Assembly: GCF_000226295.1 (NCBI RefSeq)
Contig: NC_016024.1
Location: 913,501 to 977,500 of the forward strand
Source: Chloracidobacterium thermophilum B
GTDB lineage: Bacteria > Acidobacteriota > Blastocatellia > Chloracidobacteriales > Chloracidobacteriaceae
DNA: 64,000 nt
Direction of reading: 5' to 3'
Below, piece by piece: positions 9,607 through 29,534 of this stretch (position 1 is the first letter of the stretch; each line of letters opens with the position of its first letter). The notes below the pieces were generated by a model. It was given only the letters and a program-made list of their open reading frames with translations, was not told where the DNA came from and made no database searches. A program made the position numbers and the translations under genes.

Positions 9607-12137
9607 ACCTCACAAGTCACCATGTTGACTGGCACTGGTGAAACTCTCCAGATGGATTGGGCATACTCCTGGATTGTCCGGTCACTCGAAAACTTGCCCA
9701 TTTTGGCTGTATTGAGAATGGATTTCCGTGTCCATTGGTCCTGGTCAAGGTAGGCCTGTGCCACGCGCTCCTGACATTCGACGTATGCACGATAGTCAGC
9801 CAGAACGAAATACTGATCGCCCCCTTCGAGCAGGGAGAACAGAATTGGGTGAAAAAGCTCTTTGTCCAAGGGGCTGAAGTATCCGGCGCCGATCATGTTG
9901 AGTATTTCGTTCAGCTCTGGATCGGAGTGGAAGTAGTCCCAAGGTGAATAGTGTGGCTTGAGCTTAGCGATCTCCTCAACGGTGAGTCCAAAAATGAAGA
10001 TGTTATCACGTCCAACTTCTTCAGCAATCTCAATATTGGCTCCGTCGAGTGTTCCAATAGTCAAGGCACCGTTGAGAGCAAACTTCATGTTGCCAGTGCC
10101 GCTGGCTTCCATACCGGCCGTTGAAATCTGTTCCGAAAGCTCAGCTCCCGGCATGATTTTTTCTGCCAGAGAAACACGATAGTTTGGAAGGAAAACAACC
10201 CGCAGGCGGTCTCTTGTGACCACATCGTGGTTGATGATGTCAGCAACAGCATTGATAAGGCGGATGATGAGCTTTGCCAGACGGTAACCTGGAGCTGCTT
10301 TTCCTGAGAAGAAAATAGTTCTTGGCACTATGTCGAGATTCGGCTGGTGGCGGAGGCGGTTATACAGCGTGATGGCGTGAAACAGGTTAAGCAGTTGCCG
10401 CTTGTACTCGTGGATTCTCTTGACCTGGCAATCGAACAGAGATTGTTTGTCTATACGTAGCTTGTGTTTCCACGTCTGGTTGACGACTTCAATAAGAATA
10501 TCCTTACCGTCCTGCTTGACTTTTTGCCAGGCCTGCCGGAAACCCGGATCATCGGCAAAGGGAATGAGTTTTTCCATCTCATACAGGTCGGTCATCCATT
10601 TGTCGCCAATGGCTTCTGTGATGAGAGAGGCAAGTTGAGGGTTACAGCATGCCAGCCATCTCCTTTGCGTGATGCCGTTTGTCTTGTTTTCAAACTTTTC
10701 AGGAAACATCAGCGCAAAATCCCTGAACAGGTCGCGCTTGAGAATTTCAGTATGCAGTGCTGCCACACCGTTGACCCGGTGTGAGCCAACAATAGCCAGA
10801 TTGGCCATGCGTATGGACTTGGGACGAATGCCGGGCACCGGCTCTTCAACAAGAGAGACTCTTTGGACAAGCTCTTCATTATTGGGGTACCTGACTCTGA
10901 CGTCCCGGAGGAAGTGGTAGTTGATGTCGTAGATAATCTCCAGGTGACGTGGCAGAACCTTGCCCAAAAGTTCAACGGTCCATTTTTCCAGTGCTTCGGG
11001 AAGCACTGTGTGGTTAGTGTAAGCGATTGTCGCCTGGGTCAGCTCCCAGGCTTTTTCCCAGGGGATATTCTCTTCATCAAGAAAAATGCGCATCAGCTCG
11101 GCGATAGCAATGGCTGGGTGTGTGTCATTGAGCTGTATGGCTACTTTGTCAGGGAATTCGTCGAAAGTTTTTCTTGTCTTCTTGTAGCGTCGGATAATGT
11201 CCTGAAGTGTGGCGGCAACGAAAAAGTATTCCTGTTTTAGCCGAAGTTCTTTGCCTGAGTGCCGGTTGTCATTTGGGTAGAGAACCTTTGAGATGGTTTC
11301 TGATTCTGTTTTGCTCCTGACGGCGCTTATGTAATCACCTTCATTGAAGTGGTGGAAGTCAAACTCGCGTGATGCTTTCGACGACCAAAGCCTTAGTGTG
11401 TTGACATTTTGGACACCATATCCGGGAATAGGCGTATCATAAGCCATAGCCAGAACCGTTTCGGTTTTGATCCATTTGTGAGCAATTTTGCCGTTCCCGT
11501 TTGGAAATTGGACTACCTCCCCGTAGTAGTGGACGGGATAGAGCACTTCCGGTCGTGCAATTTCCCACGGGTTTCCGTACCGAAGCCAGTTGTCTGGCTG
11601 TTCGACTTGCTCACCGTCCTTGATCTCCTGGTTGAAGATACCGTACTCATAGCGAATACCATAGCCGTAGCCGGGCAGTGCGAGTGTCGCCATGGAGTCC
11701 AGGAAACAGGCCGCCAACCGCCCAAGCCCCCCATTGCCAAGTCCCGCATCTGGTTCAGTTTCCTGAATGTCTTCGAGCCGGTAGCCAAGGTCGAGCAGCG
11801 CTCTCCGGCATTCTTCCTTGAGGTTGAGATTGACAATGGCATTGCCCAACGTGCGTCCCATAAGAAATTCCATGGAGAGGTAATAGACCCGTTTGGCATC
11901 AGCCCGGTAGTAAGTATCCTGAGTGCGCAACCAGCGTTCAATGAGCCGATCACGAACGGCATAGGCCAAGGCGAGATACTGATCCAGATGGGTCACGGTA
12001 AAGCGGTCTTTGGCGAGTGTAAATTCGAGGTGGTCAAGAAAGCTCCGCTGTATGGCTTCGGCGGTCAGTCCGTGATAACTCTCATACGCTGAAAGATTGG
12101 CAGCCGATTCTGAAAGTGATGTTTTTACTTCGGACAT
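9603..12137 (-). CDS. glgP: Glycogen/starch/alpha-glucan phosphorylase
   Basis: GT35-family enzyme of 844 residues releasing glucose-1-phosphate from alpha-1,4-glucans. The catalytic core is intact: N-terminal MEFLMGRTLGNA and GNGGLGRLAACFLDSMATL, and the PLP-lysine segment ASGTGNMKFALNGALT near the C-terminus. Start ATG 12137 is preceded by a good ribosome site (AAGGGAGAAA). Base composition is clearly more AT-rich than the neighbours (by eye 28 of 60 G+C at 11161-11220 against 36 of 60 at 8521-8580). Its TAA stop and that of the convergent AAA gene share the palindrome TTAA. No other glycogen genes are adjacent. Confidence 0.96.
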   Translation of the reverse strand: MSEVKTSLSESAANLSAYESYHGLTAEAIQRSFLDHLEFTLAKDRFTVTHLDQYLALAYAVRDRLIERWLRTQDTYYRADAKRVYYLSMEFLMGRTLGNAIVNLNLKEECRRALLDLGYRLEDIQETEPDAGLGNGGLGRLAACFLDSMATLALPGYGYGIRYEYGIFNQEIKDGEQVEQPDNWLRYGNPWEIARPEVLYPVHYYGEVVQFPNGNGKIAHKWIKTETVLAMAYDTPIPGYGVQNVNTLRLWSSKASREFDFHHFNEGDYISAVRSKTESETISKVLYPNDNRHSGKELRLKQEYFFVAATLQDIIRRYKKTRKTFDEFPDKVAIQLNDTHPAIAIAELMRIFLDEENIPWEKAWELTQATIAYTNHTVLPEALEKWTVELLGKVLPRHLEIIYDINYHFLRDVRVRYPNNEELVQRVSLVEEPVPGIRPKSIRMANLAIVGSHRVNGVAALHTEILKRDLFRDFALMFPEKFENKTNGITQRRWLACCNPQLASLITEAIGDKWMTDLYEMEKLIPFADDPGFRQAWQKVKQDGKDILIEVVNQTWKHKLRIDKQSLFDCQVKRIHEYKRQLLNLFHAITLYNRLRHQPNLDIVPRTIFFSGKAAPGYRLAKLIIRLINAVADIINHDVVTRDRLRVVFLPNYRVSLAEKIMPGAELSEQISTAGMEASGTGNMKFALNGALTIGTLDGANIEIAEEVGRDNIFIFGLTVEEIAKLKPHYSPWDYFHSDPELNEILNMIGAGYFSPLDKELFHPILFSLLEGGDQYFVLADYRAYVECQERVAQAYLDQDQWTRKSILNTAKMGKFSSDRTIQEYAQSIWRVSPVPVNMVTCEV

Positions 12138-12169
12138 AACAGTTTCTCCCTTCCTGGATTGAAAAATGA

Positions 12170-12649
12170 CTAACGTCCGCCTGAAGCCTGTGCTGGCAGA
12201 GGAATCAATCTTGAGAAGACGAACCTTCCCAGACAGGCCAGAAAGATACAGGGAATGGGTGCTGTAAACAAGGCAACTGTGCGTGGAATCAAAGCCCTAT
12301 AGCCAATTTCCGTTCCTTCCTTGATATTCAGTGAGTCCCAGTGCAGGAAATATGAGTTCTGCAAATTTCCTATCAGGCTTGCAAAAGTCATTATCCAGAT
12401 GAGAATTTCTGCAAATTCAGCGATGATGAGACCAATGAGTACGGTTTCTGTCCAGCTAAATCTGCCAACCGGTGACGACAATGCCCCGAAGTAGAGTGAA
12501 CTGAGTAGCATGGTGTTGACGATGGAAAACATGGCATTTCCACGCGGTGCATAGGGGACGCCTGAAATTCCAATGATGGAACGCCCCATTGCAATCAGAA
12601 AAATCACAATGAGTGGCATCTTCACAAAGCTGAAAACTTTTAGAAACAT
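12170..12649 (-). CDS. Small polytopic membrane protein, unknown function
   Basis: A 159-residue protein with about four hydrophobic helices (MPLIVIFLIAMG, IVNTMLLSSLYFGAL, TVLIGLIIAEFAEILIWIMTF, TVALFTAPIPCIFLACLG). It lies 32 bases upstream of glgP on the same strand and 21 bases downstream of the AddB-like gene, so it is probably read as part of the same transcript. I do not recognise a family. Composition is AT-rich like glgP, suggesting the two arrived or evolved together. The ribosome site before ATG 12649 is weak. Confidence 0.6.
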   Translation of the reverse strand: MFLKVFSFVKMPLIVIFLIAMGRSIIGISGVPYAPRGNAMFSIVNTMLLSSLYFGALSSPVGRFSWTETVLIGLIIAEFAEILIWIMTFASLIGNLQNSYFLHWDSLNIKEGTEIGYRALIPRTVALFTAPIPCIFLACLGRFVFSRLIPLPAQASGGR

Positions 12650-12670: not shown

Positions 12671-15600
12671 TTACACTGTCTTACACTGTTCCGTCACTCT
12701 TCTGTGTTTGCGTTGGATTCTGTGTGTCTCATAACGGCAAACCGGCTTGAAATCACAAAACCGGCATTCTTCCGGTCCACGTGACGGGAGCACCTGAAAA
12801 TGCCCTTTTTCGATTTTCTCTTTGTACTTCCACACATAACCCAGGATTGACTCATAGGTTTCCCTGAATTCTTCTTTTGAAAGGTAGTAGTGCTTCTGCT
12901 CCTTTGGCAACAGTTCTTCGCCATCGATTCGGTAGAGTCCATTACTGCAGCGGGGAGTTTTTGTGATGGAGTAGTATCCACCTCCAATGACAGGTTGGAG
13001 CGATGGAAAACACTTCTCTATTGATGCCAGGTAAATTGCAATCTGCACATCACGTCCTTTCCTCATTTCATCAATGGAAGTTCCTTTTGAAAGCTTGTAG
13101 TCATAGACAATGAAAAATTCCTGCTCTTTTTCTGCCTGAGGCAATTTTGCTTTCAGCACATCAATTCTGTCAATCTGGCCCCGGAGGAGAATTTTTTGCC
13201 CCTGTTTGTTCATGAGTTCCAGAGGTTGCGAGACAGAGGATTCATCAGCTCCGGTTATCTTCATACCGAAAGCCAGCTCTGTGATATGTCGTGTCGCTTT
13301 TTTGTCGTAGGATAGTTCCTCAGCAATCAACTGTTCCAGAAAGGTGATCAGGATACGTTTTTCAATTGCCCATATTTTCATGTTGAGGGGCGGAATGTGT
13401 TGCTCATACTGTACAAATACTTTTTCAGCGATTTCTCTGAGACGGGTGAGTGCTGTTTCAGAGCCTGTGCTCTGGTGTGGCAGGGGCCCGGCCCGGTAAA
13501 AGTCGCGCAGAATGTCGTGGAGAAGCCGTCCGCGTTCTGAAGCTTGCAGATCGAGTGCGGTGCTGACCCTGGGGTGCAACCGGAGGACGCGGTGGGCAAA
13601 GAAACGGAAGGGACAGGCGGCATACTCATTGAAGGCTGTGGCGCTGAAGACGTGCTGTTCCCCGAACCGTTTGTTGAGTTCGGCCTGCAAACCCTGGTCT
13701 TCAATTTGACCGTCAAAAGGCGTCCAGAGATGACTGTACCGGTCTGCTTCCACCTCCTGGCGCTGCCGGAGATTGTCCGACAGCCATTGTTGCTGCTGGA
13801 CATATTCCTGCACGGCTTCCAGTTGTTCGGTCGGGGATAACACCAAGCGGCCATTTCCTTCCATTTGGGCAGCGGAGTCCGGTTCTGAAACAAGTTGCGT
13901 GGTCGTCTGTCCACGGCGCAGTCGGGCCTCTGCGGCGGCGGTCTGGCGGAGCAGTTCGTGGCGCGTGGTGGCTTCCAGAAACGTTGCGCCGTCGTAGCCC
14001 TTGGCAACCAGAATGCGGTGCGGCTTACTGGAGTCTGTGGCTGACTTGGAGTTCGTGGCCAGCTCGAAGTCCGTGGCCGGCTCGGGGGCCGTGGCCGGCA
14101 CGAGACGCTTGATTTCGGCCAGAAACGAGGACGGGACAAGTTCCTGGTCTTCCGCGCCGACGGTCGGATAGGAAAGGTGGACGGCCTCAGTTGCCCGGCA
14201 CACAACCTGGTAGAAATAGTGTTCTTCCTTGACCATGGTGGCCGGGGAGATGTCTTCCAGAACAAGACCGTCTTCCTTGAGGCGTTCGCGCTCGGCGGGC
14301 GGATACAACCAGTCGCCCGGCAGCCGGGGCGGAAAGCCGCCCTCAACCATGCCGGGAACGAAGATGATGGGAAAATGCAGGCCGCGAATGGTGGTGACTT
14401 CGAGAATGTGTACTGCGCCAAACGTTTCCGGCTCGACGCGCAAGGTCAGGTCATCGAGTGCCTGCAGGATGTCCGACAGAAAAACCGCCAGTGTCATCCG
14501 GGCCGGCTGGCTACCGTCAGCCGTGGCTGGCTCACCCAGCGTGGCGGCAAGGCTTCGGGTCGCCAGCCGTTCGGCATCGGCCACCGCGATGGCTGCACGG
14601 CGGACTGCCTGAAGCCCCCGCAGGTCAAGGGTGGCCTGGAGACGTTGCTGTGGTTGACCGATGGCTTTCTGGATGTTGGCTTCAAGCGCCTTTTCGTAGG
14701 AAAGCTGGCTCAGGGCCTGCTCAATGGCTGCGTTTAGCTCGCCAGCCGGGCCTTCGATGGGAATTTCCGCCAGGATTTGCCCCAACTCCCGCAGGCTGCG
14801 CCCGGCTTCCTGCAACTGCGTGGCCGTGACGGCATCCGGGCGAACCATTGGCTCGCCTGACTCCACATCGCTGCCTTCGCCGGTTTCTTCTTCGTCTGCT
14901 GTGGGAGAACTGCTGTTCGCTTCCGTCGGCGGGAGAGCTTTTGCCAGGCATTCGGCACGCTTCAGCCAGTCGGCAAGGTGGAGTTGTTCACCAACAAAAG
15001 CCACGACGTTTTCAATGTCGTCGGCAGACATCTGGTGTCCGGGAAGCGTGAAATAGTCACTTTTGAGAATGTCGATCAGCCGGCTGACCGGTATCCGGTC
15101 GGGCGTTGTGTCCCCAAGGGGACGGTCGGCGGCTGCGGCGACGAGCTTGAGCCAGGCACGTACGGCCGGGATGTCGGTCACGGGCAGGCGTTCGTCAAGG
15201 GCATAGGCAATTCCTTCATCACTGAGCACCCGCCGCAGGTGCGCCCCGTAGGTGTCCCGGTCGCGGAGTACGATGGCGATGTCGGCCGGCGACCGACGCT
15301 CTTTACGGACATACCGCTTGATGGTTTTGGCAATGTGGCGAAGTTCGCGTTCGATGTCCGGCGCCACGGCCAGAAAAACCGGCACTGGTGTGTCCGGTGG
15401 GGGCGTAAACGCCGGGTTGAACAGTCCCAGGCGCAGAACATCAAGACCCGGAGCCGTGGGCAGGCGCGTCACCGGCTGGCTGCCAGTGCGTTCGTGAAAG
15501 ATGACCTCCCGGCAACCATCACCCATCATTTCCCGAATCTTGGCGATGGTTTCGTGGACGGCAGCAAAAACGGCGGGATTGTCGGCGTCGTCGTCGAAGT

Positions 15601-18394: not shown

Positions 18395-21300
18395 ATGACC
18401 GAACGCGAGTCGCCGCCGATGGAAATGACCGATGACCAGCCCGACCCGCTGCTGGGGATGACGGTGGACGGCAAGTACCGCATCGAACGGGTGCTTGGCG
18501 TGGGCGGGATGGCCACGGTGTATGCGGCCGTGCGGCTGCAAATTGGCGACACGGCTGCCATCAAGGTGCTTTCACCGGAGTCAAAATCCGTTCCGCTGGC
18601 GGTCGCCCGTTTCCAGCGTGAAGTGCGCGCTGCGGCCCGGATCAAACATCCCAACGTCGTGTCCATCTATGACTTCGGGACGCTGCCCGATGGCCGCGCC
18701 TACATGGTCATGGAGTACATCACCGGGGAGTCCCTGCGGGAAGAACTCAAGCGGGCGGGGCGTCTGTCTCCCGAACGCGCCGTGGCCATTATGACCAGCG
18801 TGTGCGCCGCCATTCATGCTGCCCATCAGGAAGGGATTCTGCACCGCGATCTCAAGCCGGAAAACATCATGCTGGCGCGCATGCGGGATGGGAGCGAAGT
18901 CGTCAAAGTGGTGGATTTCGGCGTCGCCGAGCTGCATGAGCAGGCGGCTACGTCAGCCATGACAAAGCTGACCGAATACGGGCTGATGGTGGGGACACCC
19001 CACTACATGTCGCCGGAGCAATGCCGGAGCGAGCCGCTCGATGTGCGGTCGGATGTGTACAGCCTGGGCATCATTCTCTACGAACTGCTGACCGGCAGTG
19101 TACCGTTCAATGCCCGGACGGTTTCAGCCGTCATCATCCAGCAGGCGACGGAAGCACCGCGCCGTCCGCGCGATTTGAACCCGGAGCTGAGTTGGGCGCT
19201 GGAGCATGTCGTGCTGCGGGCGCTGGAGAAAGACCCGGCGCGTCGGCCGCAGACGGCAGCCGAACTGGCCCAGGACCTGCAGTTGTCGCTGACCAATGTG
19301 AGGGCCACGGGGTCGTTCGGTTTTTCCGCCCCACCGGCCCGTGATACGACCGGTTCACTGCCGCCGGTGACGTTCGGGAGCACTTCCGAGCACCTCACGC
19401 CGCGCTCCCTGGTGGTACGCCGGTCGGGAACACTCCGCTACGACAGCCTGACCGGGATTCGGAACCTGACCTTTCTCAAGCAGGAGGTGGAAAGTCTCGT
19501 TGCCGCCCGCCGGACGGCTTCGCTGCTGCTGGTGGGGGTGGATGGCATGAAGGCCGTCAACGACCGCTTCGGCTACACCGTGGGGGACAGCCTGTTGCGG
19601 GAACTGGCCCACTGGCTGCGTGAGCACGTGGGTGAACTGGGCATTGTGGCGCGGCTGGGCGGGGATGAGTTTGCCATCCTTCTGCCTGGCAACACGGCGG
19701 CCGACGCCATCGTGTTTGCCGACCGGATGAAGCAACGCCTGGCTGAGCAACGGTTCCTGCGGGCTGAAGTGACCGGGGGACTGCCGGTGCAGGTGACGAT
19801 TGCCGTGGTGGTGTCGCCGGATGATGCGGTCACTGGTGTTGGCCTGCTCGATGTGGGTGGGCAGGCACTGGCAGCGGCGAAGCGGCAGGTGCCGGGGGGC
19901 ATTTACCGGCAGGGGCTGGATGAATCCACCCTGCGCGCCCACCCGAACTTCAACGCCTTTGTCGGTCGGGAACGGGAACTGCAACGGCTGCGGGAAATGT
20001 TTGACCGGACGGTGGCCGGGCGCGGACAGCCGGTGCTGGTGCTTGGCCCAACGGGAATCGGCAAAACCCGTCTGCTCCAGGAATTTCGCCGCCAACTCGC
20101 CGGTCAGGAAGTCACCTTTCTGACCATGCCCTTCTACGAGGCTGGTCAGGGGACGCCGTACAAGTCCTTCTACGACAGCCTGCGGGGAAGCTTGCAGTTG
20201 CTGCTTGAAGCCAATGAGCCGCCGGTCGTCCAGCAGATTCTCGGTCCGCTGGCCGAGCGGGTGTCGCTGGAGTTTGCCACCGAGGACGGGTTTCTGCACT
20301 TCTGCGATTCCGTACAGTCGGAAAACCAGCACGAGCGCTATCTGGCCTTTGACTATCTGGTGGCGCTGTACGCGGCGCTGGCGCACCAGCAGGTCACGGT
20401 GCTGTTTGTGGATGACGCGCATTTTGCTGATGAGCTGAGCCTGGATTTGCTGGCGTATCTGGCGCGCTCAACCGTTGGGCAACGACTGATGCTGGTGCTC
20501 ACGGCGCGGACGGAAGTGCTGACCGAGCAGCATCCCCTGCGCAACTGGATGCGGGCTGTCAATCAGTCGGTTGGGTATCAGTCCCTGACGCTCGAACCGT
20601 TGTCTCTGGAGGAGTCCACGGCGCTGCTCCACACGACGTTTCCCAATCTGAAGGTTGCCAGCAGCACTGTGGCCCGTCTGCATGCGGAGACCCGTGGCAA
20701 TCCGTTCTTTCTGGCCGAGATCCTGCGCCACCTCGTGCAGACCCAGCATATTGTGCGTCAGGAAGACAGTTGGGTGTTTCCGCCACTGACGGATGTCTCC
20801 CTGCCGCCGTCGGTCGTAGAGGTCGTTGAGGCTTCCTTTTCGCGTCTTTCTCCGACGGCTCTGGAGTTGTTGTCCCAGGCAGCGGTCATTGGCATGGACT
20901 TTACCTTTGACCTGCTCGTGGAAGTGACCGAGCGCCCGGAACGGGAAGTTCTGGCGGCGGTCGAGGAGGGCCTGGCGCAGGGCATCATCACCGAGTTGAC
21001 CGAAGCCGAGGAAGACAGTTACCGCTTTCGCCACGGAACGGTGCAGAAGGTGCTTTACAACCGGCTCAACCGGCGGCGGCGGCGCACAACGCATGCCGCG
21101 GTGGGATATGCGCTTGAAAAGGCGACGACCGTGACCGGGCGCAGCAGCCGCCTGGCGGGTGAACTGGCCTTTCACTTCTACCACGCGGCGGAGTATCTCC
21201 CCACCCTGCGCTATGCCGCCCTGGCCGGAACTCATGCCTGGCGGAGCTGGGCCATTGATGAGGCCCTTAAGTTTTACGGCTGGGCCGAAGAAGCCGAGCG

Positions 21301-22540
21301 CCGGTTGAACATCCTGGTGGATGTCATCTTTGATGAGAAGCAGGCATCATTCGACAACGTGCCCGTAGAGCAACTGCGGCTCATTGCCGACTTCAACCTC
21401 AACTACGGGCAGATGCTCATTCACATCGGCCGGCTGGATGAGGCTGAAAAAAAGCTCCAGCTTGCCCAGACCCTGGCGCGTCCTTCCCAGGACGAGCACC
21501 TGCGGGGCAAGACGCTGGCGGCGCTTGGTGAACTGTGCGAGGCCCGGAGCGAGTACTCCTCGGCGCTGCTCTACTGCCACCAGTCCCTTGAAATCCTGCG
21601 GCGCAAGGGCGACAAACGCGCCGAAGCCCGAACGATGGCAATGATTGGTACACTGTACGACCGGCTGGGGCAGTTGGCGCGTGCGGCTGATGCGCAGGAA
21701 AAAGCTCTGGCGCTGGCGCGCGCCATCCGGGACCGCCAGATTGAAGCCATTGCCCTGCGGGAAGGGAGCTTCGTCCGCGCCCGGCAGGGATTGTTTGCCA
21801 CGGCGGTGGCGCTGGCCAAAGAAGGCATTGCCGCTGTGGAGCGGCTGTCTGACCCGCTGGCCCTCTCGATTGCCACCAGCATCCTTGGTTTTGCCCTGCG
21901 CTCCCAGGGCGACTACGAAACCGCCATAGGGCATTTTCAACGGGCGCGCCAGCTTACCCAGGAACTGAATCGGCCCCGCAGTGAGTGCATTGAACTCATT
22001 AACATCGCGGAATGCCACATCGGGTTGGGAGAATCCTCCCTGGCGCTCGAAAAGGCCCAGACGGCGCTGGATATTGCCCTCAGGATTGGCAACCGTCAGC
22101 TTGAAGGGCTGGCAACGCTGACCATTGGCCGCGCCTATCGCCAGCGGGAGGAACTCGGTGCAGCCGTGGTGTGCTTCCAATCAGCCCTGAAGCTGCTTTC
22201 ATCCATCAGTGACCGGGCGGCCGAGTGTGATGCGCTGCTGGCGCTGGCCGATTGGCACTGTCTGGACCGGCATCCGATTGAAGCTCTCGAACTGATGCAC
22301 CAGGCACTGGCGGTACTGCCGGATGAAACCGCCCGGCCGTGGCAGTGGCGGATTGCGGTGATGTTGGCCCGTTGCCACCGGCTGTTGCGGCAGGTGGATG
22401 TTGCCCGGACTGATCTTGAGAAAGCGCGCGCCATCATCGAGGCCCTGCGGAGCAATCTTGATCCAAGTGTGCCTCCCGACCGCTTTGCGCGGGTAACACG
22501 GGCCTTTGACGAGGAATGGGCGGAAGTGTACGGCCAGTGA
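18395..22540 (+). CDS. Ser/Thr kinase - GGDEF - AAA ATPase - TPR multidomain signalling protein
   Basis: A 1381-residue cytosolic protein (no signal or membrane segment seen). Residues about 28-295 are a Hanks-type kinase: glycine loop GVGGMATVY, AIKVL lysine, HRDLKPEN near 150, DFG, and the MSPEQ activation-segment end. Residues about 348-505 are a GGDEF domain with YDSLTGIRN, the metal/base region DGMKAVNDRFG and an intact RLGGDEF near 422; the allosteric RxxD I-site upstream is absent. Residues from 522 (FVGRERELQRL) are a STAND/AAA_16-like ATPase with Walker A GPTGIGKT near 550 and LFVDDAH near 667. About 1000-1370 are TPRs. It stands alone, divergent from queD. The kinase-ATPase-TPR part resembles PknK-like proteins; the inserted diguanylate-cyclase domain is unusual. 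Confidence 0.88.
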   Translation: MTERESPPMEMTDDQPDPLLGMTVDGKYRIERVLGVGGMATVYAAVRLQIGDTAAIKVLSPESKSVPLAVARFQREVRAAARIKHPNVVSIYDFGTLPDGRAYMVMEYITGESLREELKRAGRLSPERAVAIMTSVCAAIHAAHQEGILHRDLKPENIMLARMRDGSEVVKVVDFGVAELHEQAATSAMTKLTEYGLMVGTPHYMSPEQCRSEPLDVRSDVYSLGIILYELLTGSVPFNARTVSAVIIQQATEAPRRPRDLNPELSWALEHVVLRALEKDPARRPQTAAELAQDLQLSLTNVRATGSFGFSAPPARDTTGSLPPVTFGSTSEHLTPRSLVVRRSGTLRYDSLTGIRNLTFLKQEVESLVAARRTASLLLVGVDGMKAVNDRFGYTVGDSLLRELAHWLREHVGELGIVARLGGDEFAILLPGNTAADAIVFADRMKQRLAEQRFLRAEVTGGLPVQVTIAVVVSPDDAVTGVGLLDVGGQALAAAKRQVPGGIYRQGLDESTLRAHPNFNAFVGRERELQRLREMFDRTVAGRGQPVLVLGPTGIGKTRLLQEFRRQLAGQEVTFLTMPFYEAGQGTPYKSFYDSLRGSLQLLLEANEPPVVQQILGPLAERVSLEFATEDGFLHFCDSVQSENQHERYLAFDYLVALYAALAHQQVTVLFVDDAHFADELSLDLLAYLARSTVGQRLMLVLTARTEVLTEQHPLRNWMRAVNQSVGYQSLTLEPLSLEESTALLHTTFPNLKVASSTVARLHAETRGNPFFLAEILRHLVQTQHIVRQEDSWVFPPLTDVSLPPSVVEVVEASFSRLSPTALELLSQAAVIGMDFTFDLLVEVTERPEREVLAAVEEGLAQGIITELTEAEEDSYRFRHGTVQKVLYNRLNRRRRRTTHAAVGYALEKATTVTGRSSRLAGELAFHFYHAAEYLPTLRYAALAGTHAWRSWAIDEALKFYGWAEEAERRLNILVDVIFDEKQASFDNVPVEQLRLIADFNLNYGQMLIHIGRLDEAEKKLQLAQTLARPSQDEHLRGKTLAALGELCEARSEYSSALLYCHQSLEILRRKGDKRAEARTMAMIGTLYDRLGQLARAADAQEKALALARAIRDRQIEAIALREGSFVRARQGLFATAVALAKEGIAAVERLSDPLALSIATSILGFALRSQGDYETAIGHFQRARQLTQELNRPRSECIELINIAECHIGLGESSLALEKAQTALDIALRIGNRQLEGLATLTIGRAYRQREELGAAVVCFQSALKLLSSISDRAAECDALLALADWHCLDRHPIEALELMHQALAVLPDETARPWQWRIAVMLARCHRLLRQVDVARTDLEKARAIIEALRSNLDPSVPPDRFARVTRAFDEEWAEVYGQ

Positions 22541-22655: not shown

Positions 22656-23645
22656 TCAATACCGCTCCGTAACCAGCAACAGTTTGCCCATGACAGTACG
22701 GCTTTCCAGTTGTTTGTGGGCGGCAGCGGCGGCAGCAAGTGGAAAGGTAGCCGCAATTGGCACTTGAAACGTGCCGTTGGCAACCTGCGCCAGAATAGCT
22801 TCAAGGTCAGTTCGTGCCTCCGGGTAGCGCCCGGCCGCCATGAGGTTGCCCAACTGGAAGCCGTAGATGTGGGCATTCTTGGGGTAGAAATCCCGTACGT
22901 TGATAAGCGACGGTTCGAGTGTCACATTCGCCAGTGCGGCCACTCGTCCAAAGGGAGCCAACGCCTTGAGTCCATCGGCAAAAGTCTGCCCGCCGACCGT
23001 ATCGAGAAAGGCCGTCACGCCCTTGTTTTCAGTGATGTCCCGGAGGGCTTCAAGGAGGTTGATTTCGGCGTAGTTGACCAGAATGTTCGCGCCGAGACGG
23101 GCGGCAAAGGCCAGTTTTTCCGCGCTGCTTGCGGCCGCAATGACCGTCGCCCCGACGTGGCGCGCGATCTGGATAGCGGCTGTCCCGACGCCACTGGCGG
23201 CAGCCGGAATGAGCAGCGTGTCATCCGGGCGCAGCCGGATGAGGCGGTGCAGGCAATACCACGCCGTGAGCCAGTTGACGGGCAGCGCCGCGGCCGTCGT
23301 CGTGGTGACCACTTCGGGAAGCAAAGCGACTTCATCCTCGTGCACGACGGCTTCCGTCACATAGAGACCCTTCCGGTGGCCAAAAATGACAACCCGACTG
23401 CCAACCGGTAGCCGGGCGGCACGTGACTCCACCACCACGCCAGCCGCTTCGAGTCCCGGCCGCGCCGGAGGCTGCGCACCATGGTAAGCTCCGGTGCGGA
23501 GCAGGATGTCAGCCCGATTGACGCCAATGGCCTCAATCGCCACACGGATCAAACCGGGTTCAAGGGCTGGGGTTTCTTCCGTAATCAGGTGGAGGACATC
23601 AGGGCCGCCAAAAGCTTCAACGATGATGGCTTGCCGTGTGGGCAT
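22656..23645 (-). CDS. Zinc-independent MDR-family NAD(P)H:quinone oxidoreductase-like enzyme
   Basis: A 329-residue medium-chain dehydrogenase/reductase of the zeta-crystallin/quinone-oxidoreductase group. Start at ATG 23645 (MPTRQAIIVEAFGGPDVL) is typical; the frame stays open upstream but that sequence overlaps the divergent gene. The N-terminal GroES-like domain has GVNRADILLRTGAYH and RPGLEAAGVV. The Rossmann domain has AAASGVGTAAIQIARHVGATVIAA. The catalytic and structural zinc ligands of alcohol dehydrogenases are not present. Likely reduces quinones or enones with NADPH; the exact substrate is unknown. It is convergent with the kinase-GGDEF gene and divergent from the propeller-kinase, with 71 bases between starts. 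Confidence 0.85.
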   Translation of the reverse strand: MPTRQAIIVEAFGGPDVLHLITEETPALEPGLIRVAIEAIGVNRADILLRTGAYHGAQPPARPGLEAAGVVVESRAARLPVGSRVVIFGHRKGLYVTEAVVHEDEVALLPEVVTTTTAAALPVNWLTAWYCLHRLIRLRPDDTLLIPAAASGVGTAAIQIARHVGATVIAAASSAEKLAFAARLGANILVNYAEINLLEALRDITENKGVTAFLDTVGGQTFADGLKALAPFGRVAALANVTLEPSLINVRDFYPKNAHIYGFQLGNLMAAGRYPEARTDLEAILAQVANGTFQVPIAATFPLAAAAAAHKQLESRTVMGKLLLVTERY

Positions 23646-23716
23646 ACGGGTTGGAGATGTACCTTTCGTCAGGTGATGCTGTGCTGTGGCTGCAAAGTGT
23701 ATGTTCCCGCACAACC

Positions 23717-26700
23717 ATGCCACGGCTGCACCGGATTTGGCTACTCGGTCTGTGGTGCGTGCTGGCCGGGTTTGCCGGGGGGATAAGAGCTGACCCACGT
23801 CCTGTAACAGACGTTTCGGACGGGCCGCCGGTACGTCCGTTGACGCGCCTCTTCACCGGGAAAGACGGACTACCCCAGGTTTCCGCCATGAGCCTGGCGA
23901 CTGACCGGGAAGGGTATCTCTGGGTGGCGACCCAGGATGGTGCCGCCCGGTTCGACGGACGCACCTGGAAAACCTTTGCCATGCCCAACCGCCAGCGGTC
24001 GAACTTCCTGCGGGTGTGCCTGCCCACTGGCGACGGACGCCTGTGGTTCGGACGCCAGGATGGCGGACTCGCCTGCCGCCTGCCCGATGCCACTTGGGAA
24101 AACGCGGATGAAACCACCGGGCTTCCGGCCGGTCGGGTCAATTGTCTGCTGGAGCGGACGGAAGGTGAACTCTGGATTGGCACGGAACGCGGGCTGGCCG
24201 TCTGGCGGGCAGCGACACGGCACATCGAAGTCCTGCCGGGTCCGCTTTCCGGCGAGAGGGTGCTCTGCCTGGCCAAAACTCCCGACGGCAGCGTGTGGGT
24301 TGGCACACCGAAGGGACTGGTTCGGCATGACGGACACACCTGGGAAACCATAACCGCTGGCCCAACCGGAAGTGTCTCGGCAGGTTACGTGGACGGGACA
24401 GGGGCGCTCTGGGTGGGGGGCAGCGAGGGACAGCTCTGGCGCCGGGAAAACCGTACCTGGCGGCGCTGGCCGCTGCCGATCCGCAGCCGCATCACGACAC
24501 TGACCGAAACGACGCCGCCCCAGGGGGCACGCCGCCTGTGGGTTGGAACGGATGGTGACGGCTTGCTGTACCTGCTCCCGGACAATCCGCCTGACCTTCA
24601 GGCTGTACGGGCGTTCGATGCGGCGTATGGGCTGCCCAACGTCAGTGTCTGGAGCCTGCTCGCCCTGCCGTCCGCCACTCCGGGGCAGCACGTCGGGCTG
24701 TGGGTCGGCACGGATGGCGGCCTGCTCCAGGTTTCATTTACCGGCTGGGCCACACTCGACAACATCCCCACCCTCGCCGGTGCGAGTGTCTATGGGATGT
24801 GCGCCGTGCGGCGTCCCGATGGCGGAACCAACTACTGGTTCGGGACACGCGGCAACGGACTGGTTGGCTACGCGGATGGGCGCTGGCAGCAGCTCACCGT
24901 GGCCGACGGCCTTTCGACCAACACGGTGTTCAGTGTGCATGAAACCTTTGCGGCGCAGACCGGTCGTTCCCTGTGGATTGGAACGCAGGCCGGACTGTTC
25001 CGCCGACCGGCCGGGGGGCGGGTCGCGCCGGTGCGTGCCGTGCCCAAACTCGAACGGGCAAGTGTGCGCGGCTTTCTCGAATCGGATGACGGTCTATGGA
25101 TTGTCACGGCCGGCGCCGGTCTGCTGCGCTTCGAGGCGGAGCGGTGGACGGTTTTCGACACCGCCAGCGGTCTGCCGACCGACAACCTGCACGCCGTTTG
25201 TGAAAGTGTGTCGCCCGCCGGCGAAAAAAGTCTCTGGGTGGGAATGGAAAACGGCGGACTGGCGCGGCTGGTCAACGGGCAATGGCAGGTGTGGCAGGCG
25301 CCGGTGCTGCCCAATAACACGGTCATGACCGTCCAGGTCATGGACTTTTCCGACGGACGGCAGTTTCTGTTTGCCGGGACGGAGGGCGGCGGCCTCGTTA
25401 CGGCAGAACTCGATGGTACGCCACTTCACTTTCAGGTGTGGTCAGAGACGACGACGCCCGGCTTTCCCAACGACACGGTCTATCAGGTGCGCTTCGATGC
25501 GCAACGGCGCGCCTATGCACTGACCAACAAGGGCGTGGCGCGACTGACCTACCGGGGAAATGGCAACTTCACCATCGAAACCTTTGACACCGAAGACGGT
25601 TTGCCCAGCGGAGAGTTCAACGGCGGCGCTTCGATGGTGGACCCGCTGGGGCGCATCTGGGGTGGAACCCCCAACGGCGTGGCGGTATTCAATCCGGCGG
25701 CGGAGGCGCTGGCGTTGCCACCCCAACCGCCGAGGCTTCAGGCCGCAACCGCCGATGCCAATCCCCAAAGCTTTGCCGACGGACTGACGCTGCCCGCTCG
25801 TGTGCGCAGTCTGGTTTTTGAAATCTCAGCCCCGACGTTTATCGCCGTCTCGCGCCTGCGCTACCGAACCCATCTTGAAGGCTTCGATGAACAGCCAACT
25901 GACTGGGGTTCCGAGTCCCGGCGCACCTTCACCAATCTCCGGCCCGGCGAGTACGTCTTCACCGCCTGGGTACGTGACGGATACGGACGCGAGAGCCAGC
26001 CCACCCGGATACGTTTTCGGATTGCCACGCCGTGGTGGCTGACGTGGTGGGCGTGGGTGGGGTACGTGGGCTGCGGGTTCGGAGTGGTCTATGCCGGGGT
26101 GCGGTGGCGGCTGCGGGCGCTGGAGCGGCAGAACGCGGAACTGGAAGCGAAGGTGGCCGAGCGGACGGCGGCGCTGGCCGCCGCCAAGGCGGAGGTGGAG
26201 GCGCAGAATCAGGCGCTGGCGGCGGCCAAGACCGAAGTGGAGCGGAAGAACGCGGCGCTGGACGAGAAGGTGGCGGCGCTGGAGGCGAGCCAGCGGCGTG
26301 CCGACCGGATATTTTCGGCATTGGCGGAGGCGTTGCCGGGGACGGTGCTGGACGGGAAGTACCGGTTGGGGCGGAAGCTTGGGGCAGGCGGGTACGGGGT
26401 GGTGTTTGTGGGGGAGCATCTTGGGTTGCAGCGCGGGGTGGCGGTGAAGGTGTTCAAGCCGGTGGCTGGGAATGACAGTGCGGAGGCTTTGGAGCGGTTT
26501 CGGCGGGAGGGGTTGCTGGCGGCGCAGATACGGGATCGGCACGTGGTGGAGGTGGTGGATGCCGGGGTGTCCGGGGAGGGGATGGCGTATCTGGTGATGG
26601 AGTTGCTGGAGGGGTATGCGGTGCGGGAGGAAATGCGTGGTGGTGGGATGGGGGTGGAGCGGGCGTTGCGGGTGTGCGGGGCGGTGTGTCGTGGGTTGGC

Positions 26701-27415
26701 GGCGGCACACGCGGTGGGAGTGGTGCATCGGGATGTGAAGCCGGAGAACGTGTATGTGGACTGGTCGAGCGGGGAGGAGGTGGTGAAGGTGGTGGATTTT
26801 GGGATAGCGACGGTGCTGGAGCGTGGAGGCGTGGGAGGATTGGAGACATTGACGGGGACGGGGGCGGTGGTGGGGACGCCAGCGTATGTTGCGCCAGAGC
26901 GGGTGGTAGGGGGTGAGTATGACGGGCGGGCGGATGTGTATGCGGTTGGGGTGATGCTGTACGAGATGGTGTGTAGGGTGTTGCCGTTTGGGGGGCGTGG
27001 GGAGAGTGGGATACGGGTGTTGCTGGCGCACGTGCATGAAGTGCCGGAGCGTCCTGGGGTGTTGGTGGCGGGGCTGGACGAGGAGGTGAGCGGGTATATG
27101 CTGCGGCTGCTGGCGAAGGATGCTGGGGAGCGTCCGGCGGCGGCGGAGGCGGCGGTGGAGTTGGAACGTCTGGCCGACAAGGTGGCGGGCGGGGCAGATA
27201 CAGTCCAGTCCGCGCCCTTGGGACGGTCAGCCGCGTTGTCGGACACGATGCGGGAGATGGTAGGTGGGAGGGTGGTGTCCGATGAGGCACCGACGTTGGC
27301 GGCTGCCACGTCGCCGGGGTTGCAGCCGGAGGCGACGCTGACCGAGGCGCCGGGGTCGGTGACTGCCCCGGCAGAGGGTGAGGACACCGCCGACACGACA
27401 GGTCAGCCACAATGA
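23717..27415 (+). CDS. Periplasmic Reg_prop propeller / Y_Y_Y sensor fused to a Ser/Thr protein kinase
   Basis: A 1232-residue one-component membrane receptor. The start ATG 23717 gives a signal peptide (HRIWLLGLWCVLAGFAGG). Residues about 40-680 are repeated Reg_prop propeller blades (GYLWVATQDGAARFDG, GELWIGTERGLAVW, RSLWIGTQAGLF). About 691-771 are a Y_Y_Y domain (RYRTHLEGFDEQPTDW, LRPGEYVFTAWVRDG). One TM helix (WWAWVGYVGCGFGVVYAG) lies near 775-795, then a coiled coil rich in heptads to about 870, then a kinase: LGAGGYGVVF, AVKVFK, HRDVKPEN, DFG, APER. This is the sensor layout of Bacteroidetes hybrid two-component systems but with a Hanks kinase in place of the histidine kinase. The TM-to-kinase DNA is extremely G-rich on the coding strand. 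Its stop overlaps the next start by ATGA. Confidence 0.88.
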   Translation: MPRLHRIWLLGLWCVLAGFAGGIRADPRPVTDVSDGPPVRPLTRLFTGKDGLPQVSAMSLATDREGYLWVATQDGAARFDGRTWKTFAMPNRQRSNFLRVCLPTGDGRLWFGRQDGGLACRLPDATWENADETTGLPAGRVNCLLERTEGELWIGTERGLAVWRAATRHIEVLPGPLSGERVLCLAKTPDGSVWVGTPKGLVRHDGHTWETITAGPTGSVSAGYVDGTGALWVGGSEGQLWRRENRTWRRWPLPIRSRITTLTETTPPQGARRLWVGTDGDGLLYLLPDNPPDLQAVRAFDAAYGLPNVSVWSLLALPSATPGQHVGLWVGTDGGLLQVSFTGWATLDNIPTLAGASVYGMCAVRRPDGGTNYWFGTRGNGLVGYADGRWQQLTVADGLSTNTVFSVHETFAAQTGRSLWIGTQAGLFRRPAGGRVAPVRAVPKLERASVRGFLESDDGLWIVTAGAGLLRFEAERWTVFDTASGLPTDNLHAVCESVSPAGEKSLWVGMENGGLARLVNGQWQVWQAPVLPNNTVMTVQVMDFSDGRQFLFAGTEGGGLVTAELDGTPLHFQVWSETTTPGFPNDTVYQVRFDAQRRAYALTNKGVARLTYRGNGNFTIETFDTEDGLPSGEFNGGASMVDPLGRIWGGTPNGVAVFNPAAEALALPPQPPRLQAATADANPQSFADGLTLPARVRSLVFEISAPTFIAVSRLRYRTHLEGFDEQPTDWGSESRRTFTNLRPGEYVFTAWVRDGYGRESQPTRIRFRIATPWWLTWWAWVGYVGCGFGVVYAGVRWRLRALERQNAELEAKVAERTAALAAAKAEVEAQNQALAAAKTEVERKNAALDEKVAALEASQRRADRIFSALAEALPGTVLDGKYRLGRKLGAGGYGVVFVGEHLGLQRGVAVKVFKPVAGNDSAEALERFRREGLLAAQIRDRHVVEVVDAGVSGEGMAYLVMELLEGYAVREEMRGGGMGVERALRVCGAVCRGLAAAHAVGVVHRDVKPENVYVDWSSGEEVVKVVDFGIATVLERGGVGGLETLTGTGAVVGTPAYVAPERVVGGEYDGRADVYAVGVMLYEMVCRVLPFGGRGESGIRVLLAHVHEVPERPGVLVAGLDEEVSGYMLRLLAKDAGERPAAAEAAVELERLADKVAGGADTVQSAPLGRSAALSDTMREMVGGRVVSDEAPTLAAATSPGLQPEATLTEAPGSVTAPAEGEDTADTTGQPQ
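26030..27190 (+). other. Tract of extreme G-over-C strand asymmetry within the propeller-kinase gene
   Basis: Counting by eye, 26641-26700 holds 37 G and 7 C, and 26041-26100 holds 33 G and 9 C, whereas 25501-25560 in the same gene holds 20 G and 19 C. The change coincides with the first codons of the transmembrane helix and ends soon after the kinase domain. Codons GGG, GTG, TTG and GCG dominate. All three minus-strand frames stay open across most of the tract as a by-product. Confidence 0.85.
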
Positions 27416-28020
27416 CGGAATGGACACCGGAGACGGTTATAGCAGCGTCAGTAGCCGGGGAAGCTCCACAGACAACACCGGAGGCTTTCTCGGCGCTGGA
27501 GCCGGAAGTCATTGCTCTGTGGCGGCTCAATGGGGGTATTGAGTGGGCCATCCTGCTGTCCGTGACGTTCGTCATCATCACGGTGGGCAGCATCATGCTG
27601 TCTTTGGGACTGTGGTTCTGGGCGTTGCTGGCGGCCTGGGTGCTGGCACTGGTTGTGGCGGTGGTTCAGACCATCTGGTATCCGCCGCTGGCCTATCGCT
27701 ATTCCGCCTACCGCATCACTGACCGCGTCATTGAAGTCCGGCATGGGGTGTGGTTTCGGGAGAGCCGTCTGATACCGCTGTCGCGCATCCAGCATATTGA
27801 CCTGCGGCAGGGACTTTTTGAGCGGTCGTACGGCCTGGCAACCCTTGTCTTCCACACCGCCGGCATGCACGAGTCGAGTACGCCCCTGCCGGGCCTGGCT
27901 GCCGGCAAAGCCGCTGCCCTGCGCGACCAGCTCATCGGACAGCTTCACCACCGGCCGCTGCCGGCTTCCGTGACGCCACCTGATGCCCCGGAAACGACCA
28001 ACGGAGACGCCACACTGTGA
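27412..28020 (+). CDS. YdbS-like membrane protein with bacterial PH (bPH2/DUF304) domain
   Basis: A 202-residue membrane protein. Two hydrophobic helices (residues about 44-92) are followed by a bPH2 domain with the family hallmark YRITDRVIEVRHGVWFRESRLIPLSRIQHIDLRQG. The ATG overlaps the stop of the propeller-kinase gene (ATGA), implying translational coupling, and its own stop overlaps the GTG start of the next gene. In Bacillus the homologous ydbS-ydbT pair is linked to resistance against foreign antimicrobial peptides, so an envelope-protection role is plausible. Coupling to a kinase receptor suggests shared regulation or substrate status, which is inference. Confidence 0.8.
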   Translation: MTEWTPETVIAASVAGEAPQTTPEAFSALEPEVIALWRLNGGIEWAILLSVTFVIITVGSIMLSLGLWFWALLAAWVLALVVAVVQTIWYPPLAYRYSAYRITDRVIEVRHGVWFRESRLIPLSRIQHIDLRQGLFERSYGLATLVFHTAGMHESSTPLPGLAAGKAAALRDQLIGQLHHRPLPASVTPPDAPETTNGDATL

Positions 28021-29534
28021 ACGCCGAAGCCGCCTACCGGCTGCCTTTGGCCGGGCGACTTCATCCCTGGACGCTCGTGTTCGGCCTGTTTGCCGTGGCG
28101 CGCCAGATGTTGATTCCGCTGCTCTACTGGGTCTTTTCCGGCTTCAGTGTCTTTGGCACGTTGCTGGTGCTGACGTTTGGCATTCCCAACCTGTTGCTGG
28201 TTGTTGCCCGTTACTGGACCTTCCGCTACCGGGTGGAGCAGGGCGAGCTGGTCGTCGAGCAAGGCATCCTGCGCCGTCAGGAGCGGCACATTCCCCTTGC
28301 CAACATTCAGGAAATCCGCCTCGAACAGAACCTCATCCAGCGCCAATTGGGGGTTGCCCGGGCCGACATCGAAACTTCAACCGGCGGCGGCGTTGAAGCC
28401 TCACTGGCCCTGCTCTCCGTTGATGACATTGCCCGTTTGCGCCGGTGTGTGTTCGAGCACCGGAGCGAGGGCGTACCGCAAGCCGGAGCCCTGCCAGCCG
28501 AAGCGCCGGCCATTGCGGAAGTGCCGCTGGTGAGGCTGGGGTGGCCGGAACTGCTCATTGCCGGGCTGACCTCAAACGGCATTTTCACGCTGTTTGTCAT
28601 TCTCGGCGCGCTGCTCCGGTTTGCCGAAGAATGGCTGCCGGACGCCGGACGGCGGGCTTTGCTCCGGGGGATCGAAGCGGCGGTTCGCGCACTTGGCGGC
28701 CAGAGTACGACCATGATGCTGACAACGGTCTTCCTGTCAGTGGCATTGCTCATGCTGTTGAGCGTGGCAGCTTCGGGCGTCATGACCGTAGTGCGTTTTT
28801 ACGACTTTCGGCTGACCGAACAGGGAACGGCCCTGCGGCGTACCTACGGGCTGCTGACCCGTCACATCAGCAGTCTGTCACCGGCGCGGATTCAGTTGCT
28901 GGCCATTGAGCAAACCCCGCTGCGGCGGCTGTTTGGCTGGGCATCGCTGCGGGTGGATGTCGCCGGTGTGGCTTACGAGCGCCAGGAAGAGCAACAGGGG
29001 CGGGGGGTGCTGGTGCCGCTGATCCGCCCGGCGGCAGCCGAAGCCCTGCTGGCCCGGTTTATGCCCGGTTGCGTCATGGCGCCGGGTGCGTGGCGCAAGG
29101 TGTCGCCGCTGGCGGTTCGGCGCGGCATCCTGCGGCGTTCGGTGTGGCTGGTGGCGCTGACGGCCGCGGCGCTGTGGTGGTGGTCATGGCCGTATGGACT
29201 GTGGCCGCTGCTGGTGGGCTTGCCGGTCATCGGGCTGGTGAGCTGGCTGGACTACCGCGCCCGTGCCTATCTTCCCGGTGCACGCTACTGGTTCGTGCGG
29301 CAGGGATGGGCCAGCCACGCCGTGTATGCCATTCCGGTCAACAACATCCAGGCGGTGGTCGTGGCACAGACGCCTTTCGATCTGCGGTTGGGCTTGGCCA
29401 CGCTCATCCTCGACACAGCCGGACAGACGCCGGTCATCATCCGGGACCTCCCGGTTGCCGAAGCCTGCGCGCTGGGGCGGCAGGTGGCGCGGCAGGTTGA
29501 AGACACATCAGGTCGCAAGGCAGTAGGTTTCTGA
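28017..29534 (+). CDS. YdbT-like polytopic membrane protein with repeated bPH2 domains
   Basis: A 505-residue protein with several paired hydrophobic helices and about three bPH2 (DUF304) domains. The first has YRVEQGELVVEQGILRRQERHIPLANIQEI, the second YDFRLTEQGTALRRTYGLLT, the third YWFVRQGWASHAVYAIPVNNIQ. The GTG start at 28017 overlaps the stop of the YdbS-like gene (GTGA). The pair matches the ydbS-ydbT arrangement. Function is not established beyond envelope stress and peptide resistance in Firmicutes. It ends the kinase-bPH2 operon; a short hairpin and T-run follow. Confidence 0.8.
   Translation: MNAEAAYRLPLAGRLHPWTLVFGLFAVARQMLIPLLYWVFSGFSVFGTLLVLTFGIPNLLLVVARYWTFRYRVEQGELVVEQGILRRQERHIPLANIQEIRLEQNLIQRQLGVARADIETSTGGGVEASLALLSVDDIARLRRCVFEHRSEGVPQAGALPAEAPAIAEVPLVRLGWPELLIAGLTSNGIFTLFVILGALLRFAEEWLPDAGRRALLRGIEAAVRALGGQSTTMMLTTVFLSVALLMLLSVAASGVMTVVRFYDFRLTEQGTALRRTYGLLTRHISSLSPARIQLLAIEQTPLRRLFGWASLRVDVAGVAYERQEEQQGRGVLVPLIRPAAAEALLARFMPGCVMAPGAWRKVSPLAVRRGILRRSVWLVALTAAALWWWSWPYGLWPLLVGLPVIGLVSWLDYRARAYLPGARYWFVRQGWASHAVYAIPVNNIQAVVVAQTPFDLRLGLATLILDTAGQTPVIIRDLPVAEACALGRQVARQVEDTSGRKAVGF

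What the first reader, a model, noticed from the sequence alone, without database searches (positions are those of the whole stretch)
26030..27190. Sharp G-rich strand asymmetry exactly over the TM-coiled coil-kinase module
Coding-strand G:C counts change from 20:19 to 33:9 and then 37:7 within one gene, starting at the transmembrane segment. Amino-acid choice cannot explain it, since synonymous codons shift to GGG, GTG and TTG. It marks the kinase module as a separately evolved or recently captured cassette, or a site of biased mutation (R-loop, diversification or gene conversion among paralogous kinases).
Basis: seen in the sequence. Interest (0 to 1): 0.65.

Follow-up and report, generated by a model that had tools for sequence, protein, structure and literature searches.

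The report
G-skewed receptor-kinase module undergoing gene conversion
The G-rich stretch is real and marks exactly the part of a bacterial receptor kinase gene that is copied back and forth between two neighbouring sister genes in related species; a similar strand bias is known from the recombining surface-protein cassettes of Lyme Borrelia, but why recombining DNA becomes G-rich on one strand is not settled.

Summary
Confirmed. In a receptor kinase gene (propeller sensor, TM, coiled coil, Ser/Thr kinase; 23636-27415) of a genome whose size equals Chloracidobacterium thermophilum B, four-fold G:C changes from 199:196 in the sensor to 194:17 in the module, with a change-point at 26027. None of about 37 other kinases in the genome, and 1 of about 717 other sampled gene models, is comparably skewed.

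Two related species with closed genomes carry two adjacent genes with unrelated sensors (36% aa) but near-identical modules (98.3% and 99.3-99.5%). Sensors group by copy, modules by species: concerted evolution by gene conversion. The converted segment starts at window 26027, the skew edge. The window's gene joins the copy-1 sensor to the copy-2 tail; this is a real deletion or a 454 assembly collapse.

The skew also affects codon positions 1 and 2 (Gly, Val up; Ile, Pro down), so it is DNA-level pressure, shared by the genus and not a recent capture. An Rpn gene repeats the pattern (four tandem copies in the sister species). Unskewed duplicates and skewed single-copy genes exist, so the causal direction is open. 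Closest known case: Borrelia vls cassettes (coding-strand skew about 0.52).

The parts
23636..27415 (+). receptor Ser/Thr kinase gene, 1259 aa: Reg_prop propeller, Y_Y_Y, TM, coiled coil, Pkinase, tail
   Evidence: ORF list, Pfam
23636..26026 (+). sensor part (Reg_prop propeller and Y_Y_Y), no skew; orthologous to copy-1 sensors of G001 and G006
26027..27186 (+). TM-coiled coil-kinase module; the stretch homogenised between tandem copies in G001 and G006
26027..27350 (+). G-skewed tract; the 3' end is gradual
26360..27151 (+). protein kinase domain PF00069; glycine loop, AVKVF, HRDVKPEN, DFG and APE motifs present
27187..27415 (+). C-terminal tail, related to the copy-2 tail of G001 and not to the copy-1 tail: junction of a collapsed pair
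27412..28020 (+). bPH_2 domain membrane protein, conserved downstream neighbour
28017..29534 (+). second bPH_2 protein, conserved downstream neighbour
25826..27037 (-). one of three long antisense ORFs over the tract (also 26209-27396, 26454-27596); by-product of the lack of TTA, CTA and TCA on the + strand
   Evidence: inference

Best explanation
The tract is the shared output module (TM, coiled coil, kinase) of a tandem pair of receptor kinase genes with different propeller sensors. Recurrent gene conversion between the copies keeps the modules nearly identical while the sensors diverge. Over the age of the genus this recombining stretch has come under coding-strand-specific pressure that removes C and accumulates G, strongly enough to move first and second codon positions. 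My preferred mechanism, inferred: GC-favouring repair of heteroduplexes during conversion together with C loss on the coding strand (for example deamination of the displaced strand in R-loops), so that G becomes the sink. Shown: the skew, its edges, concerted evolution, effect at all codon positions, absence from non-converting homologs. Inferred: the causal link and the molecular steps. In the window the pair is reduced to one gene by a real deletion or by assembly collapse.
For: Within-species module identity 98.3% (G001) and 99.3-99.5% (G006) against about 85% between species. Modules group by species (99/98, 89/94), sensors by copy (100/100). Skew edges lie within about 30 bp of the homology edges in the window gene (5'), G001a (both), G001b (5') and G006b (both); in the window 26027 for both. 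15 of the 20 differences between the G001 copies lie in the last about 55 bp, a conversion edge. Non-converting kinases, including homologs of the same architecture at 41-49% aa identity, are unskewed. Gly 31-49 against 21.6+/-3.4, Val 33-45 against 23.1+/-4.4, Ile 3-6 against 15.8, Pro 7-9 against 16.3; codon position 1 and 2 skews outside or at the edge of the range of 59 other kinases. Four-fold G+C rises from 0.77 to 0.87 although C is lost, as GC-biased repair plus C loss would give; T also gains over C at two-fold sites. The second most skewed gene of the sample, an Rpn nuclease, is a four-copy tandem array in the sister species. Single-copy G002 has a weaker skew (0.68) than the species with pairs (0.93-0.96). 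Replication asymmetry is far too small.
Against: Local duplicates without skew exist: 325 bp at 98.8%, 408 bp at 95.8%, 306 bp at 92.8%, an older 1.76-kb pair at 83.5%, 126-bp repeats. Skewed genes with no DNA paralog exist: a LivM-like permease and an IS200-like transposase. In the Rpn array the unit ends are homogenised but unskewed, and diverged single Rpn genes carry skew in their 3' half, so skew may come first. Polarised recent substitutions show G loss (12 and 10) at least as frequent as gain (6 and 5), so the pressure is at equilibrium or over. In copy b of G001 the skew extends about 170 bp past the homology, and the G006a 5' edge is fitted 234 bp inside the module. No experiment on conversion or R-loops is available.
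Confidence: 0.5

Rival explanations
1. Skew first: an older G-rich coding strand, arising for another reason, makes the tract prone to R-loops or G-G interactions and so to breaks, tandem duplication and gene conversion, as proposed for Borrelia vls. The skew causes the recombination, not the reverse.
For: Skewed single-copy genes and unskewed duplicates; unskewed ends of the Rpn units and older skew in diverged Rpn genes; kinase module skewed in single-copy G002; a mildly skewed glycosyltransferase is single in G001 but a tandem pair in G000.
Against: G-run number in the module equals the synonymous-shuffle expectation and runs of 5 or more are depleted (5 against 13); no Chi-like word enriched; does not say where the skew comes from or why weaker skew goes with the single copy.
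Confidence: 0.27
2. A transcription- or translation-linked bias or selection unrelated to recombination (for example selection for C-poor mRNA or Rho evasion) acts on a few genes.
For: The extreme tail is coding-strand only (80-codon windows above 0.8: 48 against 1, most of them from the kinase itself); some skewed genes have no copies.
Against: Sharp edges inside one gene at the homology limit; codon positions 1 and 2 and amino acids also changed; all other kinases unaffected.
Confidence: 0.13
3. Recently captured foreign cassette with its own codon habits.
For: Composition unlike the rest of the gene; the same module sits behind two unrelated sensors.
Against: Module present and skewed in all three lineages of the genus, at the same locus where neighbours could be read; its relatives are Chloracidobacterium and family-level kinases of the same architecture without skew; the genome collection gives no nearer source.
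Confidence: 0.05
4. Sequence or assembly artefact of the window.
For: The window genome is a 454 assembly by size match; its single copy may be a collapsed repeat.
Against: The same skewed module is in genomes whose sizes match the PacBio assemblies. Only the copy number is in doubt.
Confidence: 0.03

Closest known systems
Borrelia vls cassettes (vlsE/vlsS), PMC11499132
   Same: Coding-strand G skew (0.52 there, about 0.5-0.6 here) confined to a segment that undergoes gene conversion, with G-rich codons; non-recombining homologs lack it (vlsH there, other kinases here)
   Different: Two expressed genes and no silent cassette array; conversion homogenises and does not diversify; a signalling kinase, not a surface antigen; G runs not clustered beyond codon use; much higher genomic G+C
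Concerted evolution of tandem paralogs by gene conversion
   Same: Within-species identity far above between-species identity, sharp tract edges, trees of the two parts disagree
   Different: The strong one-strand composition bias and the amino-acid shift
GC-biased gene conversion
   Same: Four-fold G+C is higher in the tract (0.87 against 0.77)
   Different: It predicts G and C to rise alike; here C is almost lost on one strand
Rpn (PF04754) tandem arrays, PMC10327210
   Same: Local tandem duplication; in this genus the Rpn gene has a similar internal G skew
   Different: Unrelated protein; skew covers only the middle of each unit

Membership tests
Concerted evolution by gene conversion | copies more alike within than between species | tested here: met
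   98.3% and 99.3-99.5% against about 85%
Concerted evolution by gene conversion | flanking parts keep copy-specific history | tested here: met
   sensors group by copy 100/100, modules by species
Concerted evolution by gene conversion | sharp tract limits | tested here: met
   1161 and 1151 bp blocks; differences pile up at the 3' end in G001
vls-type antigenic variation system | coding-strand GC skew limited to the recombining segment | tested here: met
vls-type antigenic variation system | expression site plus silent cassette array | tested here: not met
   two full genes, no cassette array
vls-type antigenic variation system | clustered G runs beyond codon expectation | tested here: not met
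   54 runs against 51 expected; runs of 5 or more 5 against 13
vls-type antigenic variation system | sequence switching during growth in a host | not testable with these tools
   needs passage and long-read sequencing
Reg_prop/Y_Y_Y receptor Ser/Thr kinase | propeller, Y_Y_Y and Pkinase domains | tested here: met
   Pfam over cut-off
Reg_prop/Y_Y_Y receptor Ser/Thr kinase | kinase activity | not testable with these tools
   catalytic motifs present in the sequence
Recently transferred cassette | patchy presence or foreign nearest relative | tested here: not met
   found across the genus

The most novel reading that the evidence does not exclude
In this genus, long-lived recombination between tandem copies is coupled to a coding-strand-specific C-loss/G-gain process that rewrites both codons and protein composition of the exchanged segment. 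A vls-like skew would then be a general, readable footprint of chronic gene conversion in bacteria and not a special adaptation for antigenic variation.
Probability: 0.33. Interest if true: 0.78.

Novelty: new variant of a known kind. Interest (0 to 1): 0.52.

Why it matters
The skew of Borrelia vls has been read as selected for antigenic switching. A parallel in a free-living phototroph, on a signalling kinase where conversion keeps copies the same, suggests that skew may accompany chronic recombination in general. It makes a testable question: does recombination create one-strand G skew, or does G skew create recombination? It also shows two different sensors kept on one identical kinase output by gene conversion, and warns that short-read assemblies may hide such pairs.

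Tried and rejected
Chi-like or other enriched words: none beyond synonymous-codon shuffles. Selection for G-quadruplex runs: G-run number as expected, long runs depleted. Replication-strand asymmetry: only about 0.1. A property of all kinases: rejected. Near-identical kinase elsewhere in the genome: none in the assembly. Recent capture: rejected by presence across the genus. Duplication alone as sufficient cause: rejected by unskewed duplicates. Ongoing intensification: polarised substitutions do not show it. The whole genome was not available as a file, so rarity rests on sampled stretches. The first kinase table read minus-strand loci unturned; one search corrects this. A motif scan of the other delta-60 genes gave no result and was not pursued. 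One accession guess was not in the collections.

Full report
What is there. The finding lies in a 3780-base gene (23636-27415) coding for a receptor kinase: Reg_prop propeller, Y_Y_Y, a transmembrane segment, a coiled coil and a Ser/Thr kinase domain with its glycine loop, Lys, HRDVKPEN, DFG and APE motifs. The genome has two contigs of 2,683,362 and 1,012,010 bases; the sum, 3,695,372, is the size given for the 454 assembly of Chloracidobacterium thermophilum B in PMC8245765. G001 (3,715,176) and G006 (3,659,143) equal sizes of PacBio genomes in that table; the names are inferred from size alone.

The observation. GC skew rises from about 0 to 0.5-0.6 over the tract. Third-position G against C has a single change-point at 26027 with LLR 70; the best of 2000 shuffles gave 9.5. 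Four-fold sites are G199 C196 in the sensor and G144 C6 in the kinase. In gene models from about 0.96 Mb of sampled stretches of this genome, 2 of 718 exceed 0.9 in any 80-codon window, and no gene is below -0.85. All other kinases of this genome lie between about -0.3 and +0.31 (one search did not turn minus-strand loci, one search does).

What the tract is. In G001 and G006 two receptor kinase genes stand side by side. Their sensors are unrelated beyond the fold (36% aa), but the stretch from the transmembrane segment to the end of the kinase is 98.3% and 99.3-99.5% identical over 1161 and 1151 bp, against about 85% between the species. Trees disagree: sensors group by copy (100/100), modules by species (99/98 and 89/94). 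This is concerted evolution by gene conversion. The skew edges fit the homology edges: G001a 11270-12404 against 11270-12430; G006b 14196-15351 against 14226-15376; window 5' edge 26027 against 26027. Exceptions: the skew runs about 170 bp past the homology in G001b, and the fitted 5' edge of G006a lies 234 bp inside.

The window's own copy. Upstream sequence and sensor match copy 1 of G001 (96.5%), and everything after the module matches the sequence after copy 2. So the pair has been reduced to one gene. This may be a real deletion, but the assembly is 454 and its PacBio re-sequencing is 61 kb longer, and the four-copy Rpn array of G001 is also a single copy here; assembly collapse is quite possible.

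History of the skew. The three lineages {G000, G001}, {G006} and {G002, G004, G005} are about equally distant (about 70% DNA identity) and all carry the skewed module. G002 has one copy with its own copy-1-like tail and a weaker skew (0.68 against 0.93-0.96). In G004 and G005 contigs break inside the module. G003 has a frameshifted relic with low skew. Homologs of the same architecture at 41-49% aa identity, in the genus and the family, are unskewed.

DNA-level pressure. The skew is present at codon positions 1 (0.39-0.54 against 0.16+/-0.07), 2 (0.08-0.31 against -0.12+/-0.07) and 3 (0.48-0.81 against -0.03+/-0.11). Gly and Val are raised above all 59 other kinases, Ile, Pro and Gln lowered. 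At two-fold sites T gains over C and G over A; at four-fold sites G replaces C and A, and total G+C rises from 0.77 to 0.87. This fits C loss on the coding strand plus pressure towards G/C. Recent substitutions, polarised with G006, show G losses of 12 and 10 and gains of 6 and 5 in the two lineages, so the process is at equilibrium or past it.

Is it general? Scanning the sample gave one other gene above 0.9 in this genome: an Rpn/YhgA-like nuclease with skew in its middle part, which is a four-copy tandem array in G001. A glycosyltransferase with patches of skew is single in G001 and a tandem pair in G000. A delta-60 repeat gene in G003 has skew 0.34-0.41. Against a simple rule: duplicates without skew, skewed genes with no copies, unskewed ends of the Rpn unit, and skew in diverged single Rpn genes. 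The association is suggestive and rests on few genes; the kinase and relatives fetched through it are not an independent sample.

Mechanism. I prefer that chronic conversion with GC-favouring repair, plus coding-strand C loss in a recombining, transcribed stretch, produced the skew (0.5 for the whole statement; about 0.9 for the gene-conversion part alone). The main rival turns the arrow round. No Chi-like word is enriched and G runs are not clustered beyond codon use, so a selected G4 device is not supported.

Comparison. The nearest known case is the vls locus of Lyme Borrelia, whose cassettes have a coding-strand GC skew of about 0.52, absent from the non-recombining vlsH (PMC11499132). Here the resemblance is in the skew and its limits; the silent cassettes and G-run clustering are missing, so it is not filed as a vls system. 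A search for papers joining gene conversion, GC skew and tandem bacterial paralogs found nothing on this point, within the limits of that library.

Noticed in passing
G001:C2:870088-874275 (L196) and G000:C2:866418-867416 (L180:16418-17416): Rpn/YhgA-like nuclease (PF04754) with internal G skew; four tandem copies in G001, one in the window's genome; variable QQGL/QQGM repeats near the C terminus.
   Followed up: partly
L118:8800-11500 (G003:C1): Frameshifted relic of the kinase module followed by a delta-60 (DUF5122) repeat gene with G skew 0.34-0.41.
   Followed up: partly
L246:2824-6353 (G000:C1:97.8-101.4 kb): Glycosyltransferase-like gene as a tandem pair, second copy broken; single in G001; moderate patches of G skew.
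   Followed up: partly
L114:5802-7559 and 9280-10994 (G006:C1): Another tandem pair of propeller-type sensor genes, 83.5% identical over 1.76 kb, without skew.
   Followed up: partly
L161:11951-13962 (G000:C2): Relaxase-like gene in low-GC DNA next to a 41-bp repeat block, with strong skew of both signs; looks foreign.
   Followed up: no
L084:4709-7914 (G001), between window 22540 and 22672: About 3.2 kb with two minus-strand ORFs present in G001 and absent from the window.
   Followed up: no
window 18395-22540: Kinase-GGDEF-AAA-TPR protein next to the finding, conserved in synteny.
   Followed up: no
L049:5853-7133 (G000:C2): LivM-like permease with skew up to 0.80 in 80 codons and no DNA paralog in the genome.
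   Followed up: partly
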